The notes under the pieces are model-generated. The model made no database searches, had not been told where the DNA came from, and saw nothing but the letters and a program-made list of their open reading frames with translations. Both the position numbers and the translations under genes were made by a program. From an uncultured Anaerolineaceae bacterium (lineage in GTDB: Bacteria > Chloroflexota > Anaerolineae > Promineifilales > Promineifilaceae), in NCBI GenBank assembly GCA_937967805.1, contig CALBTC010000276.1, positions 1 to 31,820 on the forward strand: a stretch of 31,820 nucleotides of DNA, given 5' to 3'. Within the stretch, counting starts at the first letter, position 1, and each line of letters opens with the position of its first letter. This document shows positions 358 to 31,162 of the stretch, in pieces.

Positions 358-3300
358 TTAGCGAATAGCAATCGCGTCAATCTGGTCGCTGTCCAATCCA
401 TTGGCGGCGCCATCCCAGAACATAGTGAACGTACAATCCGTGTAACCACCCGAAGCATCCGGGCTGCAAACCAGGATGAGTCCATCCGCACTGCTGGTCG
501 CCAGATAGAGGTCGCCGGTCTCGTTGTCTTGATGCACGGCCACGATGCTGTCCTGACTGGCGCTGAGGAGTGGCACAACATCGGAACCGTCAAAGTAGAT
601 CGCCCAACTACCGGCGGTATTCCCGCCCAAACTGGTAGGGGTAAACACGACCAGGTCGCGACTTTTGGCGTTGAGGCTGCCGGCTTTAAACGGGCCATCG
701 GTACTGATGACAATACGGCCGTCCCCCAACACCGTCAGCGCGCTAATACTTTCTTGTGGCGTCTTCAAATCCACATCAGAGCCGTCAAAGTAAAGCGACC
801 AACTGCCACCGGTCTCTTCGCCCAACGTATACGGTTCAAAGCGTAGAATATCGGAATTATCGACGTTGCTGCCGCGCGTGGCCGGTATGTTCAGCTCCGG
901 CAGATAAAAATCATTGGCCACGGCGACAAGCAAGCTGCCATCGGGAAGCCAGGCGAAGGCGGTCACGTTTTGTCCGGCCAGCCCCACGTCGGAGCCATCG
1001 AACAGCAGGGACCATTCACCACTGTCCAGGTCAAAGCCCAGCACGTCTTCACCGCTGTAGGCGATGCCATCCACCATGCCGCCGGTGGGCGTACTCAGGT
1101 AAAGCGTTTCGCCGGTCTCCATTGGTTCCTCGATGATCGTCAGTGAGCCGCTCGCCGACGACGGCAGATAGCGGTCATCTGGTAGATTGAGATTGCCACC
1201 GGGCAGCGGAATGGTGCCGCTGAAGTAGACGTCAACCGTGTACATGCCTGTGGGCAGCGGCAAGGCGGTTAGTGAAGCGCGCCCGGCAAAATCGGTGATG
1301 ACGGCCTCGGCGTAAGTGCCATTGTCACCGCTGATGATGAAGAAGACGGTTTTCTGGCCAAACGGCCGTCCCGACACATCTTTCAACGTAGCCACAAACG
1401 GAGCCAATTCACCCACTTCAACCGTGGCATCTGCCGGTTCCAGCGTGAGCACAGTGGCCCGCTTGGTGATAGTAAATGGTGCGGTGTCAAACGATGCCTG
1501 ATAGATGGCGTCGCCGCCAAACGTAACGGCCAGTTCCGTATTTCCCGGTAAACCGAGCAGCGCCAGGGTTGTGGTGGCCACACCAGACTCATCCGTGAGC
1601 ACTGTGCGCGTTTGCGGTCCTACGCGGAAGCTGAGGAACTGGTTGGCCACCGGTTCGCCGTCGGCGGTTAACTGGGCGCTGACGCTGATCGCAGTGCTGT
1701 ACGCACCGGAACTGGGCGGCGTTTGCAGGGTAACGGCCGTTGCCAGCAAATCGCCTTCGGCCGTGCCCGCACCGCTGTAGTAAGCACCCAAATTGGTCGC
1801 CGCACTGACCAAACCAACGCCGTTAGCCGCCTGCACAATGAAGCGCACCTCGTCGGCCGGAATGCCGTTCAACGGCAAAGTTGCCGACCAGATCGTGCTG
1901 TCATTTTCACTTTGTACCAGGTCAATAGATTGCCACAGGCCGGCCATTGCGCCGCTGCCGGTGTAAGTGACCCACACTTCCTGGATGCCCGCGGCCACAT
2001 CGCCAGTGACCCGCGCCTGAAAAGTCACGCTGTCCTCGCCGGGGAAGGCGTTCACCTGGGTGATGGCCGGCGGCGCCGCCAGGGCAGGCACATTGCCCGT
2101 CACCTGCGACTGGGCGATGTAGTCGCTGTAATACAGCCGGAAATCCATCGAATCAAAGCGGCGCAGCGTACCCGTTAGCGAAGCTGCGTTGTCCGAAAGG
2201 AATTGAGCCGGCGTCACGTTCAACTGCACCGCGCCAGACATCCCTTCGACCAACTGGCCAAAATAGTTCACCTGGTACGGCTGCATCGGGTAGAAGACGC
2301 TGCTGACAAACGGCGGATGCACGCCGCGAATTTCAGTGGTGGCTGCGCCGGTCAGCGGCAAGATGTCGGACAAGTCGGTAAATTCACCACCGCGGAAGCC
2401 GACGCCGCGCAAAACGGTGTCGGCCACGCCCACATTGAGCGATTCCAGCGGCAGGACCGGTTCAGCAGGGTTCACGACCACGCCATCGCTGCCACTCAGA
2501 TAGGAGGCAGTGACGCTGCTGGGCACATCGGTACCCACGATGTCGAGCTGCTGGTTCACCAGCGTCAGGTCTGGCTCAATGGTGAGATCGGCGTAGGTGA
2601 GGCCCAGCGCCTGGCCGGGATTGCTGGAGAAGCCGGACGTGCTGCCAATCACGGAGGGACCACCAGAGGGATTGCCACGCCCGGCAGGCATGTCGATTTT
2701 GAGCATGGGCAGACCAAAGAGCGTAGAAACTAGAAGTGATTTTTCGTGCAACGGCCGTAACTCCTGCGTTTCCATCAGATAGGTTTGCTTAGCCGCTGCC
2801 AGCGCCTGGCCGATGGCTACAGGGCCTGTACCGGCGCGCAGCTCTTCGCTGAAAGCAAGGTAGAGCCGCTCGCTGTACTCGATGAAATCCGTGTCGCCAT
2901 ACTGGTAGCCCGTCCCGGCAATAAGTGTCGCCCCCTTACCGGCAAAGGCCTGGGCCCAATCCGGTTGTACCGTCACGCCGGGCACGCCATGTTCATTCAC
3001 GATGTTGTAACCCGAATGACAGCCGGCACTAAACACCAGCGCGTTGGTCATATCGACACTGGAGGCGGCAATCTCAGAAGCCAGCAGGCGGGTGCTGTAA
3101 TCGGCGGCCAGGGCGCTGCCGGCGCTAAAGTGCCCCGCCAGGAAGCTAACGTCGTATCGATTGGCCAGCAGCAAATTGCGCAAATCATCGGCTGTCCAAG
3201 AGAGCGGATCGGTTGGGGCAATGTCTCGCGGGGTGATGAGCGTCGTGGCGCTGCTGCCCAATCCACTGGACAACTCAGCAGCCACGGCATTGGCGGCATC

Positions 3301-5637
3301 TTCCAGGAAGTCGTAGCCGGTCACCAGGGCAGAATTTGGCGTGTCCACCACCCCGTTGGTGGTGCTCAGGTAGGCGTCCAGCATCGTCACGACCTGTTCT
3401 GGCGTTTCCACCAGCCGGCCCACTGCCAGATCGGGAATGGGCAGCGTGTCGCTTTTGCTGGAGAGCTCAACGGAGGAACCGTAGCGATCCTGGCCAAGAA
3501 TATAACCCAGCCGCAGGCTGGCTTGCGAAGCGGTGTTGTCCAGAACAGGCGGCACGTAGTTGCGCTCGTTGGCCAGCAGCGCCTGGTCGGGATGGCGGAA
3601 GAAAGGAATGACATCATCGTTACCGATGATGACGATGTAGGCTAGCGGGTTGAGTGCGCGGTAGCTGTCTACAATCTCTTTGATTGAATAGGCGACCAGG
3701 TTTTTAGCAAAGGGGCAGGTCGGGTACAAGTCTGCCTGAGTGTTAGCCGCCGCCACGCGGGCATCGCTGCTTACATCGACGATGACGCCGTTTACTTCGG
3801 GACGGGCGGCAAAGGTGGCCAGGCGGGCCTGCATGGTGGTGAGATCGCCGGACATGCGGCTGGTGTCGGCCAGGATGATGGTGTTGATGTTGTTGGCAAC
3901 GGCCGTATGCGTCCCGGCCGGCAGCGCAGTTGTCACGCTGCCACAGTTACCGGCTGTTTGCGTCACGTTCAGGGTGAAATCGTTGTTCGGGTCAAAAACG
4001 CCGTTACGGCCGCGCACCCGAATGTAGAAATCACCGCTGTTTTCCCAGGTGTTTAGCTGCACGCCCTCGCCCGCTGTGCCGTTAAAGGCAGAGACGGCAA
4101 TCAGGCTGCGCATCTGGGCGCTGGAGAAAGCGTCCGGACTGAACGCGTCCGGACTGAACGCGTCCGGCGAGAAGGCGTCTGGTGAGAAAGCATCCGGGCT
4201 GAACGCATCAGGGCTAAAGGCATCGGGGCTGAATGCATCAGGACTGAAGGCATCAGGACTGAACGCGTCCGGACTAAAGGCATCGGGAGAAAAAGCATCC
4301 GGGCTGAACGCATCAGGGCTAAAGGCATCAGGGCTAAACGCATCGGGACTGAAGGCATCGGGGCTGAATGCGTCAGGCGAAAAAGCATCCGGGCTAAACG
4401 CATCCGGGGCAAATTCGGCCGTGAGTTCGACTAAATCATCAGTATCGTCCAGCGTCAGCAGCGATTCCCACTCGGCAGCGATGTCCTTGTAGACGGTGAG
4501 GTCGTAGTTGGCCGGCAGATCAGTCAGGGTAATGACCAGTTGGCTGTTGGGCTGGACAGAGAATTTATACCAGCGGGACTGCCCGGCCAGGTCCAGCCGC
4601 TGGCTGATTTGGGCGGTTTGCACCTCGGGCGAGACGCTGTCCGGCACCAGATCGAGGCGCAGGGCGCGCGGCCAGGAATCATTGCCCAGGCCGGTGTAAA
4701 TGCAGCGACTAAATTCGGAAGTGCCATCGGTGCCGGTGGCCAGAGCGGTGAGGGTGGCGTCGGTGAGGCTGGTGGAAACGGCCGTTTCAAAGCTGGCATT
4801 CCCATTGGCATCAGTGTACACAACTGTGCTGCCCAACCACGCCTCTCCTTCGCCAAAACCGGAGCTGTGGCAGCTATCGCTGGCAAAAAAGTCGATGGTG
4901 AAGCTGCTGTTGGCCTGGCTGTTGAGAATACCTTCCACATCTAGACTTGAGCCTGTGGGAACGGCGCGGATGAGCGTGGGGCTGTTTTGACGGCCGTTGG
5001 CCCCGCCATCCGTATCCCCAAGATCGTTGGGCGTCTGGCCATCCCCCTCCAGGTCAATGCCCAGGCCGCCATTGGCAAAGATACCATTTTGGCTCAGCAC
5101 GGTGCCGCTGCCACTCACAACCTGGATGCCGCTGCTATTATTGTTGCTAATGGTGTTGCGCTCAATGAGACTGTTGCTGCCGCTGACCACCACACCACTG
5201 CCCTGCCAGTTTTGAATGGCTAGATCGCGCAGGGTAATGACATTACCAGCCAGGATCAGACCATCGGCCGGGCCAGCCTGGCTGCCGTCCAGAACGACGT
5301 CAATGGTGTTGTTTAAATTGGTTTTGAGCAAAACGGAGTTTGTGATAGCGGGGAGCGGAGAAGTGGGAAAAATAACAACGGTGCTCAGGGTGCCGACCTT
5401 GAACTGGATGATGGCGTTGCCGCTGGGCAGCGCATTGGCCGCCTGAATCGCTTCACGCAAGGAGCAGTGGGATTGGGTGCAAGCGCCGTCATCTTCATCG
5501 GCGGTGGTGTTGACGGTGTAAACGGCCGTCCCCCGCCCGCTGGCCAGAACAGAAGTGGTAACAAACAAGACAAATAAAGCTGCAAGGAACAAATAAAAGG
5601 TTCGCCAAAGATTCGATCGTCGATTCACGCTGTCCAT
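358..5637 (-). CDS. Giant secreted C25 (gingipain-like) peptidase with CSLREA start, interrupted PPC domain and C-terminal repeats
   Basis: This 1759-aa protein begins with a hydrophobic signal segment (residues 13-32). A CSLREA motif follows (58-63), then a short beta-helix-like region. A PPC-type beta-sandwich at about 345-565 is split by 19 PDAFS pentapeptides (411-505). A caspase-like C25 region lies at about 640-960, with IIGNDDVIPFF, an LPIPDLAVGRL strand, a candidate catalytic His836 (GHFSAG) and Cys873 (SAGCHSGYN). After that come Ig-like segments near 1330-1500. Four propeller-like repeats with FDGSDV motifs end the protein (near 1545, 1617, 1682 and a degenerate WDGAAN near 1741). 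The chosen ATG lies close to an AAGAGAGAAAGG purine tract. It is presumably an exported or surface protease. The domain calls are from motif recognition; substrate and processing are unknown. Confidence 0.85.
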   Translation of the reverse strand: MDSVNRRSNLWRTFYLFLAALFVLFVTTSVLASGRGTAVYTVNTTADEDDGACTQSHCSLREAIQAANALPSGNAIIQFKVGTLSTVVIFPTSPLPAITNSVLLKTNLNNTIDVVLDGSQAGPADGLILAGNVITLRDLAIQNWQGSGVVVSGSNSLIERNTISNNNSSGIQVVSGSGTVLSQNGIFANGGLGIDLEGDGQTPNDLGDTDGGANGRQNSPTLIRAVPTGSSLDVEGILNSQANSSFTIDFFASDSCHSSGFGEGEAWLGSTVVYTDANGNASFETAVSTSLTDATLTALATGTDGTSEFSRCIYTGLGNDSWPRALRLDLVPDSVSPEVQTAQISQRLDLAGQSRWYKFSVQPNSQLVITLTDLPANYDLTVYKDIAAEWESLLTLDDTDDLVELTAEFAPDAFSPDAFSPDAFSPDAFSPDAFSPDAFSPDAFSPDAFSPDAFSPDAFSPDAFSPDAFSPDAFSPDAFSPDAFSPDAFSPDAFSPDAFSPDAFSSAQMRSLIAVSAFNGTAGEGVQLNTWENSGDFYIRVRGRNGVFDPNNDFTLNVTQTAGNCGSVTTALPAGTHTAVANNINTIILADTSRMSGDLTTMQARLATFAARPEVNGVIVDVSSDARVAAANTQADLYPTCPFAKNLVAYSIKEIVDSYRALNPLAYIVIIGNDDVIPFFRHPDQALLANERNYVPPVLDNTASQASLRLGYILGQDRYGSSVELSSKSDTLPIPDLAVGRLVETPEQVVTMLDAYLSTTNGVVDTPNSALVTGYDFLEDAANAVAAELSSGLGSSATTLITPRDIAPTDPLSWTADDLRNLLLANRYDVSFLAGHFSAGSALAADYSTRLLASEIAASSVDMTNALVFSAGCHSGYNIVNEHGVPGVTVQPDWAQAFAGKGATLIAGTGYQYGDTDFIEYSERLYLAFSEELRAGTGPVAIGQALAAAKQTYLMETQELRPLHEKSLLVSTLFGLPMLKIDMPAGRGNPSGGPSVIGSTSGFSSNPGQALGLTYADLTIEPDLTLVNQQLDIVGTDVPSSVTASYLSGSDGVVVNPAEPVLPLESLNVGVADTVLRGVGFRGGEFTDLSDILPLTGAATTEIRGVHPPFVSSVFYPMQPYQVNYFGQLVEGMSGAVQLNVTPAQFLSDNAASLTGTLRRFDSMDFRLYYSDYIAQSQVTGNVPALAAPPAITQVNAFPGEDSVTFQARVTGDVAAGIQEVWVTYTGSGAMAGLWQSIDLVQSENDSTIWSATLPLNGIPADEVRFIVQAANGVGLVSAATNLGAYYSGAGTAEGDLLATAVTLQTPPSSGAYSTAISVSAQLTADGEPVANQFLSFRVGPQTRTVLTDESGVATTTLALLGLPGNTELAVTFGGDAIYQASFDTAPFTITKRATVLTLEPADATVEVGELAPFVATLKDVSGRPFGQKTVFFIISGDNGTYAEAVITDFAGRASLTALPLPTGMYTVDVYFSGTIPLPGGNLNLPDDRYLPSSASGSLTIIEEPMETGETLYLSTPTGGMVDGIAYSGEDVLGFDLDSGEWSLLFDGSDVGLAGQNVTAFAWLPDGSLLVAVANDFYLPELNIPATRGSNVDNSDILRFEPYTLGEETGGSWSLYFDGSDVDLKTPQESISALTVLGDGRIVISTDGPFKAGSLNAKSRDLVVFTPTSLGGNTAGSWAIYFDGSDVVPLLSASQDSIVAVHQDNETGDLYLATSSADGLILVCSPDASGGYTDCTFTMFWDGAANGLDSDQIDAIAIR
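4123..4407 (-). repeat. 19 tandem 15-nt units encoding PDAFS
   Basis: Nineteen contiguous 15-nt units encode Pro-Asp-Ala-Phe-Ser without a single amino-acid change, while codons differ widely between units. Serine switches between AGY (14 units) and TCN (5 units), which takes two base changes. This indicates selection on the peptide rather than a recent slippage expansion. The array occupies a loop of the PPC-like domain at residues 411-505. Confidence 0.95.
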
Positions 5638-30273: not shown

Positions 30274-30654
30274 CTATCTGATAACGTCATTCAGATCGGC
30301 GCGCAGCGTTTCGGCCGTTTGTGGACCAAAATAACGCGCCGCTACCGCGCCCTCATCATCTAAAATGGCCACCGACGGATGCCCGCGCAGTCCATACGTT
30401 TGCTGTAACAAACCGTTTTCCGGATCGGCCGCATTCAGCCGTAAAAACGTGACTTCTTCCCCAAACTCTTCTTCCAGCCCATTCACGATGGGCGCAAACT
30501 CCGCTCAGGGCGGTCAGTTATCGGTATAGAAATATAGGAAGGCCGGCGCAGGCAATTCTGGTGCCTCAGGCGCAGAGTCAGACTCAGCACAGCCGACGAG
30601 AGCAAACAAGACGCCAAAGAGGGCTACGGCCGTAATCCAAACCAAACGTCTCAT
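30274..30654 (-). CDS. Thioredoxin-like lipoprotein with two in-frame TGA codons at the active site (UPPU; probable selenoprotein)
   Basis: From ATG 30654 to TAG 30274 the frame encodes 126 residues if two TGA codons (30514-30516 and 30505-30507) are read through. It begins with a lipoprotein signal peptide with lipobox LVGC (Cys22). The thioredoxin fold follows: FLYFYTDN, then TGA-Pro-Pro-TGA at residues 47-50, then AEFAPIVNGLEEEFG, LRLNAAD, and the cis-Pro loop LRGHPSVAILDDEG. Thioredoxin relatives have CPPC here, so both TGA codons replace exactly the two redox cysteines. The start is fixed by AGGAGG 6 nt upstream, which overlaps the stop of the cytochrome c gene. Without recoding only 46 residues, or a fragment from an internal GTG, would be made. 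Selenocysteine decoding is inferred; selA, selB and selC are not in the window. Confidence 0.82.
30477..30493 (-). promoter_or_regulatory. Candidate bacterial SECIS hairpin
   Basis: On the mRNA strand GCCCAT-CGUGA-AUGGGC forms a perfect 6-bp stem with a 5-nt loop that carries G at its second position. It begins 11 nt after the second UGA and 20 nt after the first. In E. coli fdhF the minimal SECIS stem also begins 11 nt after its UGA. Binding by SelB is inferred from structure and spacing only. Confidence 0.55.
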
Positions 30655-30660
30655 CTCAAA

Positions 30661-30666
30661 CCTCCT
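30661..30666 (-). promoter_or_regulatory. Shine-Dalgarno AGGAGG of the thioredoxin-like gene
   Basis: A perfect AGGAGG, overlapping the TAG of the cytochrome c gene, lies exactly 6 nt before ATG 30654. It shows that translation starts upstream of both TGA codons. Confidence 0.85.
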
Positions 30667-31162
30667 ATCTTGCTGACTGCGCTTCTAAGATTTCTTGGGG
30701 CCAGCTACTTTTGATATAGGCCAACACGGCCGCAATCTGCCGGTCGGTTAGCACTTCCTCATAAGCAGGCATGGCGCTGACCCCAATGTTTGGATCCAAC
30801 CGCGCCCCGCCCAGCTTAATCGATTCAATCAGATAGGCGTCGCTGTGATGCCAGGTGTGGCCCGTTTCATCATGCGGCGGTGCCTTAAACGAGCCATCTT
30901 CGTACGGTTGCTGCCACGCCGGCTGGCCTTCCAAATCGAAGCCATGGCAGGCAGCGCAGTAGGTGTCGTACACTTCCTTGCCCGCCGCCACCAGCTGCCG
31001 GTCGTCTACATCGATCTGTTCAGAACTGTTTTCATTACTGGGCCACAGCAAAACACCGGTCAAAACGAGCAGACCGCCCAAAACCACCAAACCAACCATC
31101 AATAATTGGCGGCGTTGTTTCTTTTGGGCCATCCCATATTTCTGCTTTTGAACTCGTTTCAT
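30665..31162 (-). CDS. Membrane-anchored mono-heme cytochrome c
   Basis: The 165-aa product has a basic N-terminus, one transmembrane anchor (roughly 20-41) and a single class I cytochrome c domain. The heme-binding motif is C69-A-A-C72-H73 (DTYCAACHG), and the likely distal ligand is Met131 in VSAMPAYEEVLTDRQIAAVLAYI. The heme domain should lie outside the membrane and carry electrons. ATG 31162 is favoured by GGAG about 9 nt upstream. The stop overlaps the Shine-Dalgarno of the thioredoxin-like gene, so the pair is an operon. A thiol or selenol oxidoreductase next to a cytochrome c could serve heme attachment or extracytoplasmic redox chemistry, which is inference from position. Confidence 0.9.
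   Translation of the reverse strand: MKRVQKQKYGMAQKKQRRQLLMVGLVVLGGLLVLTGVLLWPSNENSSEQIDVDDRQLVAAGKEVYDTYCAACHGFDLEGQPAWQQPYEDGSFKAPPHDETGHTWHHSDAYLIESIKLGGARLDPNIGVSAMPAYEEVLTDRQIAAVLAYIKSSWPQEILEAQSAR

What the first reader, a model, noticed from the sequence alone, without database searches (positions are those of the whole stretch)
30274..30654. Thioredoxin-like lipoprotein with both active-site cysteines encoded as TGA (UPPU)
The reading frame is intact before and after two in-frame TGA codons. Together these take exactly the positions of the two cysteines in the CPPC motif of thioredoxins. Two independent errors or mutations hitting precisely both redox codons and nothing else is improbable, so double selenocysteine insertion is the best explanation. 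UxxU redox motifs are rare, and an outward-facing di-selenol thioredoxin-like lipoprotein would be unusual chemistry. Standard gene callers would report only a short C-terminal fragment.
Basis: partly seen in the sequence, partly recalled or inferred. Interest (0 to 1): 0.95.

Follow-up and report, generated by a model that had tools for sequence, protein, structure and literature searches.

The report
Thioredoxin with two predicted selenocysteines
This gene, which has relatives in many Chloroflexota genomes, carries UGA codons in place of both active-site cysteines of a thioredoxin-like, predicted lipoprotein, followed by one conserved RNA hairpin that is predicted to make the ribosome insert selenocysteine at both, which would give a natural reductant that works with a selenium-selenium pair instead of a disulfide.

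Summary
Confirmed and extended. On the minus strand (30654-30274) a 126-residue frame has TGA at residues 47 and 50, the CxxC positions of a thioredoxin domain (PF00085 over cut-off; confident AlphaFold2 thioredoxin fold). The nearest genome keeps both TGAs in an 82%-identical protein, and the 23 best matches in 98 related genomes all hold two TGAs. Downstream lies a 6-bp hairpin with a 5-nt loop that fits the published loop, stem and spacing rules for a bacterial SECIS, with compensatory changes and frozen synonymous codons; it is intact in 1 of 9 CxxC homologues. The nearest genome has selA, selB, selD and tRNA-Sec; selA is over cut-off in 20 of 23 UxxU genomes. The loop lies 26 and 17 nt after the two UGAs, so one SECIS probably serves both. 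Function is inferred: an outward-facing di-selenol reductant, perhaps fed by CcdA/DsbD-type carriers and acting on cytochrome c or other extracytoplasmic thiols. A 2026 review lists UxxU in three other families and thioredoxin only as UxxC, so I rate it a new variant of a known kind. Selenium insertion is untested.

The parts
30274..30654 (-). Thioredoxin-like, predicted lipoprotein gene, 126 codons, TGA at codons 47 and 50, TAG stop 30276-30274
   Evidence: PF00085 35.9 bits against cut-off 23.5 with TGA read as C; 23 UxxU proteins aligned
30661..30666 (-). AGGAGG, likely ribosome-binding site; it overlaps the stop codon (30667-30665) of the upstream cytochrome gene
   Evidence: read from the sequence
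30589..30600 (-). Lipobox L-V-G-C, residues 19-22, after a hydrophobic helix; Cys22 is the predicted lipid anchor
   Evidence: C22 invariant in 23 of 23 aligned UxxU proteins
30514..30516 (-). First UGA (residue 47), predicted Sec, at the position of the N-terminal active-site Cys
   Evidence: TGA at the same place in the nearest genome and in the 11 UxxC rows too
30505..30507 (-). Second UGA (residue 50), predicted Sec, at the position of the C-terminal active-site Cys
   Evidence: TGA at the same place in the nearest genome; TGC or TGT in the 11 UxxC rows
30477..30493 (-). Predicted bacterial SECIS hairpin GCCCAU-CGUGA-AUGGGC; starts 11 nt after UGA2 and 20 nt after UGA1; loop 30487-30483
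   Evidence: 97.0% of cells paired, 4 of 6 pairs with double changes, 0 of 500 shuffles as high; RNAalifold finds the same helix unaided
30376..30387 (-). R-G-H-P, residues 90-93, at the cis-proline loop of the thioredoxin fold
   Evidence: G91, H92, P93 invariant in 23 of 23, R90 nearly so
30274..30486 (-). The 70-residue fragment (P0002) held in the protein database, starting at the GTG inside the hairpin loop; it has no active site
30665..31162 (-). c-type cytochrome, predicted membrane-anchored (start probably ATG 31162; longest ORF runs to 31207), 10 nt upstream of the thioredoxin gene on the same strand, probably one operon
   Evidence: PF00034 48.2 bits; homologue within 1.5 kb on the same strand in 11 of 23 fetched UxxU loci

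Best explanation
The gene encodes a protein of the thioredoxin family in which UGA stands in place of both active-site cysteines, and a single conserved hairpin just downstream is predicted to act as the SECIS element through which SelB would insert selenocysteine at both, giving a U-P-P-U active site. The protein would be anchored by Cys22 on the outer face of the membrane and cycle between a di-selenol and a diselenide. It would most likely be reduced through the membrane by a CcdA/DsbD-type carrier and in turn reduce disulfides (or metal-ligand cysteines) of extracytoplasmic proteins, such as the c-type cytochrome encoded next to it. Shown here: the two TGAs, their conservation, the hairpin and its covariation, the family by sequence and model, the Sec genes of the nearest genome. 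Inferred: insertion of Sec in the cell, the lipid anchor, one hairpin serving two codons, the electron donor and the substrate.
For: Thioredoxin family: PF00085 above cut-off; AlphaFold2 model (Cys in place of Sec, 23-row alignment) mean pLDDT 93.0, best Foldseek matches E. coli thioredoxin. Conservation: nearest locus L001/G001 82% identical with both TGAs; the 23 best matches in 98 genomes all hold two TGAs, and in 23 genomes I read out a UxxU member; 4 more came from 400 genomes of the phylum. Selection: dN/dS 0.19 before U47 and 0.07 after U50 between window and G001; a 45-nt stretch over codons 45-59 is identical, matched by 60 of 20000 codon shuffles. Hairpin, 29 rows: 97.0% paired, 4 of 6 pairs with double changes, 0 of 500 shuffles as high in pairing or covariation score (14 of 500 for further pair types); slid controls at most 46.4% paired. 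Frozen codons: I56 ATC 24/24, V57 GTG 24/24, N58 AAT 17/17, G59 GGG 22/22, while G91 and P93 use 4 codons each. Inner 5 pairs all formed in 26 of 27 distinct UxxU, 10 of 11 UxxC, 1 of 9 CxxC rows. Published bSECIS limits (3-9 nt loop, 4-16 bp stem, G in first two loop positions, 16-37 nt from UGA; PMC13188914, passages) are met by the window hairpin: 5 nt, 6 bp, CG, 17 and 26 nt. Machinery; selA over cut-off in 20 of the 23 UxxU genomes. Donor: DsbD_TM over cut-off in 20 of 20 genomes given (20 of the 23 UxxU genomes); in G082 a CcdA-like gene starts 1 nt after the UxxU gene's stop.
Against: No selenium, protein or read data. The window's own genome is not held, so its Sec genes are untested. 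Three UxxU genomes (G040, G044, G051) lack selA over cut-off; G051 has a tRNA-Sec match over cut-off, G040 and G044 do not; no completeness is given, so gaps in the assemblies are possible but unproven. selA is common here anyway (81 of 98), so co-occurrence is weak evidence. Five full-length database relatives carry Trp at both positions; their DNA was not seen. The fold z-score of the bare 41-nt hairpin is only -0.62; MFE over 48 nt misses the published -7.5 limit in 3 of 27 UxxU rows and passes in 8 of 9 CxxC rows, so energy alone does not discriminate. Several of the 9 CxxC rows look like ordinary thioredoxins, so part of the hairpin contrast is with distant proteins. DsbD_TM is also over cut-off in 10 of 14 control genomes. 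The CcdA pairing is one locus and the cytochrome neighbour is in 11 of 23, so the function is a guess by context.
Confidence: 0.8

Rival explanations
1. Same double-Sec protein, different job: an antioxidant, selenium/metal-handling or copper-site maturation protein rather than a disulfide reductant for cytochromes.
For: Neighbours vary. Among 25 hand-picked neighbour ORFs sent to Pfam: HAD domains of probable P-type ATPases (L013, L016, L023), YtkA (L025), cupredoxin (L029), DsbA-like (L014, L015, L022), DUF3105 (L014, L026, L031), DUF1573 (L016).
Against: PF00578 (AhpC-TSA) is below cut-off, 17.4 against 26 bits; the most frequent neighbour that I measured is the c-type cytochrome (11 of 23). 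No activity could be tested.
Confidence: 0.35
2. The UGAs are read as cysteine by a Sec-like tRNA charged with Cys, giving an ordinary CPPC thioredoxin.
For: Such tRNAs are known elsewhere (recalled, from no call); the tools cannot tell Sec from Cys at a UGA.
Against: selA, selB, selD and tRNA-Sec are all present in the nearest genome; a SECIS-type hairpin is kept; Cys codons are used at the second position in UxxC relatives, so Cys can be encoded directly.
Confidence: 0.04
3. UGA is a real stop: a decayed or regulatory gene from which only the 70-residue C-terminal fragment is made from the GTG in the hairpin loop.
For: This is how the databases list it: 18 of 19 hits are 69-72 residues long, and 113 of the 120 listed (of 717) hits are 80 or shorter.
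Against: The part before the UGAs is under purifying selection (dN/dS 0.19), with the lipobox Cys and Pro37 invariant in 23 of 23; the fragment lacks the first strand and the active site.
Confidence: 0.02
4. Assembly or base-call errors.
For: The window has no genome on record here and the nearest genome is a MAG.
Against: Both TGAs are read in 27 other genomes, at down to 34% protein identity.
Confidence: 0.005

Closest known systems
Sec-containing thioredoxin (PF00085, UxxC; Table 1 of PMC13188914)
   Same: Thioredoxin family, Sec at the first active-site position
   Different: Here both positions are UGA, and the protein is a predicted lipoprotein; the PF00085 row of that table lists UxxC with one Sec
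Prx-like thiol:disulfide oxidoreductase (PF00578, UxxC/UxxU, 1-2 Sec; same table)
   Same: Thioredoxin-superfamily protein in which a UxxU form is listed
   Different: Our protein is under the PF00578 cut-off and over that of PF00085; no direct comparison with WP_010940744.1 was made
Prx-like 2 family of the GOS survey with UxxU sequences (PMC2398784, passage)
   Same: Bacterial UxxU sequences from marine metagenomes
   Different: Described there as low similarity to pfam04592 and a very distant homologue of known Prxs; not compared here by sequence
ResA/TlpA-type and CcdA-dependent extracytoplasmic thioredoxins
   Same: Thioredoxin family, predicted membrane anchor, cytochrome c and (one locus) CcdA context
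   Different: NCBIfam ResA model 21.4 bits against a cut-off of 170; UGA in place of both Cys

Membership tests
Bacterial selenoprotein | In-frame UGA at positions that are Cys in homologues | tested here: met
   28 UxxU, 11 UxxC, 9 CxxC rows at the same two positions
Bacterial selenoprotein | SECIS hairpin 16-37 nt from UGA to loop, loop 3-9 nt, stem 4-16 bp, G in first two loop positions | tested here: met
   Window: 17 and 26 nt, 5-nt loop CGUGA, 6 bp; limits from PMC13188914
Bacterial selenoprotein | SelA, SelB, SelD and tRNA-Sec in the organism | tested here: inconclusive
   Own genome not held; all four in the nearest genome G001; selA in 20 of 23 UxxU genomes; tRNA-Sec over cut-off in 7 of the 9 UxxU genomes, though G059, a genome without selA or UxxU, also passes that cut-off
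Bacterial selenoprotein | Selenium in the protein | not testable with these tools
   Needs labelling or mass spectrometry
Thioredoxin family PF00085 | Profile match over the curated cut-off | tested here: met
   35.9 against 23.5 bits, TGA read as C
Thioredoxin family PF00085 | Thioredoxin fold with a conserved Pro (cis-Pro loop) and a two-residue redox motif | tested here: met
   Model pLDDT 93.0 with Cys for Sec; Foldseek to E. coli thioredoxin; GHP invariant; the two Cys are UGA
Thioredoxin equivalog (TIGR01068) | Equivalog cut-off | tested here: not met
   33.2 against 96.8 bits
ResA (NF002854, PRK03147) | Subfamily cut-off | tested here: not met
   21.4 against 170 bits
Prx-like UxxU oxidoreductase (PF00578) | Profile match over the cut-off | tested here: not met
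   17.4 against 26 bits
Bacterial lipoprotein | Hydrophobic helix and lipobox Cys | tested here: met
   LVGC at residues 19-22, Cys invariant in 23 of 23; read by eye, no signal-peptide program was run
Bacterial lipoprotein | Acylation of the Cys | not testable with these tools
   Needs an experiment

The most novel reading that the evidence does not exclude
A whole thioredoxin lineage in Chloroflexota has fixed Sec at both catalytic positions and so runs its redox cycle on a diselenide, and one small hairpin recodes two UGA codons 6 nt apart in succession, so that SelB must deliver twice from the same SECIS.
Probability: 0.75. Interest if true: 0.8.

Novelty: new variant of a known kind. Interest (0 to 1): 0.7.

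Why it matters
The 2026 review says that the vast majority of its 119 prokaryotic selenoprotein families have a single Sec (PMC13188914). Here a lineage has kept two in one redox motif, which asks why a Se-Se pair would pay for its cost outside the membrane; a diselenide is expected to be far more reducing than a disulfide (recalled chemistry). It also offers a natural, compact test of whether one bacterial SECIS can serve two UGAs: the single-Sec UxxC relatives carry the same hairpin 26 nt from their only UGA, a ready-made control. And the database records that I saw listed are mostly fragments of 69 to 80 residues without the active site, so a redox family is easily overlooked in annotation.

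Tried and rejected
Chance open frame: tested by shuffling; the frame alone is not unusual (25 of 100 shuffles), so it was not used as evidence. Larger fold: the 60-nt fold of the window pairs the second UGA region with a downstream stretch (z -2.29), but RNAalifold on 29 rows keeps only the 6-bp hairpin, so the longer stem was dropped. Hairpin energy as a discriminator: rejected, since CxxC rows pass the energy limit as often (8 of 9 against 24 of 27). Rfam and tRNA scans of the window: nothing. Viral contigs: 21 pattern matches, no relative. Second genome-contig hit L002 (Cohnella, residues 2-27 only) was judged a chance match and dropped. Partial hit L040 (G021) was dropped because no lipoprotein N-terminus is in frame before the motif. 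L053, L059 and L061 repeat L035, L034 and L039 and were counted once; L068 was dropped because no thioredoxin motif was found; L073, L074 and L077-L081 were not read. The first extraction script read minus-strand loci in the wrong direction and was redone; one search was out of frame and redone. Number of origins of UxxU: the tree has 90 columns, UxxU needs 2 changes and one origin is not ruled out (28% of bootstrap trees), so no claim is made. Co-occurrence with selA: too common (81 of 98) to be strong evidence. Papers: eight searches; five were for such a family or for double recoding (with 'selenocysteine', 'lipoprotein', 'thioredoxin-like', 'UGA', 'metagenom', found 0), three for chemistry or SECIS rules. 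Of PMC13188914 I saw passages and part 1 of section 7; PMC9312934, PMC2398784, PMC7539508, PMC12013277, PMC8659212 and PMC3834832 as passages only; all others as search listings. Supplementary files were not read.

Full report
Reading window 30654 to 30274 on the minus strand with TGA as Sec gives 126 residues with TGA at 47 and 50 and a TAG stop. Read with Cys in their place, the protein matches Pfam Thioredoxin at 35.9 bits (cut-off 23.5), with residues 47 and 50 on the CxxC positions. No NCBIfam model passes its cut-off for the window protein (17 families listed). The AlphaFold2 model (Cys for Sec) has mean pLDDT 93.0, pTM 0.75, and a thioredoxin fold after one N-terminal helix; the top Foldseek matches are E. 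coli thioredoxin.

An open frame across two TGAs is not in itself surprising: 25 of 100 mononucleotide shuffles of the window give one as long. The evidence comes from relatives. No whole genome is held for the window. A scan of genome contigs with six exact peptide patterns, which finds close relatives only, gave one true relative, L001, a MAG titled Anaerolineaceae bacterium isolate NAT123, held as genome G001; it is 82% identical over 126 residues and keeps both TGAs. Neighbouring ORFs match G001 at up to 93%, so the window is likely from a related Chloroflexota species.

In 98 genomes (G001 and relatives), one search found matches in 83. The 23 best matches by E-value, in 22 genomes and down to E 2.3e-16, all contain two TGAs; the next one has one. 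I read out the hits returned as loci: 23 genomes have a UxxU member (L011-L032, L035). In the alignment of 23 proteins (window included; L029 left out for lack of a start in frame) the lipobox Cys, P37, I56, V57, GHP and G110 are invariant. Five loci have a UxxC relative (L033, L036-L039) and one a CGSC relative (L034). An even draw of 400 genomes of the phylum gave matches in 349; of its 29 new loci I read 22, which added four UxxU (L054, L055, L058, L062), six UxxC and eight CxxC rows, four being repeats or without motif. In all, 48 rows: 28 UxxU (window included), 11 UxxC, 9 CxxC; rows were kept on a TGA/TGY pattern. A tree of these rows does not exclude one origin for UxxU.

After the second TGA come 11 nt and then the stem-loop GCCCAU CGUGA AUGGGC. 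On 29 rows (24 UxxU, 5 UxxC), 97.0% of cells pair, four of six pairs show changes on both sides, and none of 500 shuffles reaches the observed pairing or covariation score; sliding the partner by 1 to 3 columns drops pairing to at most 46.4%. RNAalifold finds the same helix without being told. The codons that form it are frozen: ATC 24/24, GTG 24/24, AAT 17/17, GGG 22/22, where equally invariant residues elsewhere (G91, P93) use four codons each. Window and G001 share a 45-nt identical run over codons 45-59, although dS is 1.64 over codons 60-125. The inner five pairs all form in 26 of 27 distinct UxxU rows, 10 of 11 UxxC rows and 1 of 9 CxxC rows. That last contrast is partly with distant proteins, since several CxxC rows look like ordinary thioredoxins; the one CxxC row that keeps the helix (L067) may be a return to Cys. 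The window hairpin satisfies the loop, stem, guanosine and spacing rules of the published bSECIS model (PMC13188914), the spacing rule for both UGAs, 26 and 17 nt. UxxC relatives have the hairpin 26 nt from their UGA. So one hairpin is placed to serve two UGAs; that it does so is inferred. Energy is not a discriminator: the -7.5 limit is met by 24 of 27 UxxU and 8 of 9 CxxC rows, and the 41-nt z-score is -0.62.

The nearest genome has selA (579 bits), selB (337), selD (375, itself with one in-frame TGA) and a 95-nt tRNA-Sec match (71.8), all over cut-off (the cut-offs are passed by 1, 2, 2 and 5 of 14 control genomes). selA is over cut-off in 81 of 98 relatives and in 20 of the 23 UxxU genomes. 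Of the other three, G051 has a tRNA-Sec match at 62.2 bits, while G040 and G044 have none over the cut-off; their completeness is not told, and this remains an open point against. The tRNA-Sec cut-off is not perfectly clean, since G059, with no selA match and a CGSC homologue, has an 87-nt match at 52.0 bits.

Databases hide the family. The first protein search returned 19 hits, 18 of them 69-72 residues long and beginning at the residue of V57, which in the window is the GTG in the hairpin loop. A search with the alignment returned 717 hits, of which 120 are listed; 113 of those 120 are 80 residues or shorter. I read 10 of the 120: five are full-length and have Trp at both positions, which I take as TGA read with code 4, though their DNA was not seen; the other five begin after the active site.

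Function is inferred from context. The gene lies 10 nt after a c-type cytochrome (PF00034), and a homologue of that cytochrome lies within 1.5 kb on the same strand in 11 of 23 fetched UxxU loci, 8 upstream and 3 downstream (in L014 in pieces; some loci are cut by contig ends). Among 25 hand-picked neighbour ORFs, others are DsbA-like proteins, DUF3105, HAD domains of probable P-type ATPases, YtkA, a cupredoxin and unrelated genes. In G082 a CcdA-like protein (DsbD_TM, 37.3 bits, with SPCVLPL) starts one base after the stop of the UxxU gene, and DsbD_TM proteins are over cut-off in all 20 UxxU genomes given (of 23), as in 10 of 14 controls. The simplest reading is a CcdA-fed extracytoplasmic reductant whose active pair is Se-Se; my confidence in double Sec is about 0.95 and in this particular job about 0.5, and the 0.8 given for the explanation blends the two.

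Compared with what is known: Table 1 of the 2026 review lists UxxU for Prx-like thiol:disulfide oxidoreductases, a metal-binding protein and FmdB-family regulators (the only three uses of UxxU in its main text), and thioredoxin PF00085 as UxxC with one Sec (PMC13188914). The GOS survey reports several UxxU sequences in a Prx-like 2 family (PMC2398784, passage), and UxxU forms of SELENOW are reported in amphioxus and an alga (PMC7539508, passage). 'Chloroflex' does not occur in the main text of PMC13188914, PMC9312934, PMC2398784 or PMC12013277. The searches showed me no description of this family, in a library of open-licence papers only. I therefore call it a new variant of a known kind.

Noticed in passing
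L032 (G082:C10), 2-265 minus: CcdA-like gene begins one base after the stop of the UxxU gene, a possible electron donor pair; cut by the contig end.
   Followed up: partly
G001:C165:26370-26780: A second, single-TGA member of the family in the same genome as the closest UxxU protein.
   Followed up: no
G013:C115:2113-2448: A second two-TGA member of the family in genome G013, not fetched.
   Followed up: no
G001:C32:34568-35503 (L050): selD of the nearest genome has one in-frame TGA, so SelD itself is probably a selenoprotein.
   Followed up: no
G039:C216, G044:C457, G047:C272, G006:C772, G028:C113: Weaker matches (E about 1e-6 to 1e-8) to other thioredoxin-like frames with two TGAs, perhaps other double-Sec families.
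   Followed up: no
L067 (G349): A CAVC homologue that still has the full 6-bp hairpin, perhaps a Sec-to-Cys return.
   Followed up: no
P0021, P0022, P0026, P0065, P0110: Full-length database proteins of this family with Trp at both active-site positions, probably TGA read with code 4; DNA not seen.
   Followed up: partly
window 358-5637 minus: A long ORF (1759 aa) has many tandem copies (roughly twenty by eye) of a DAFSP pentapeptide.
   Followed up: no
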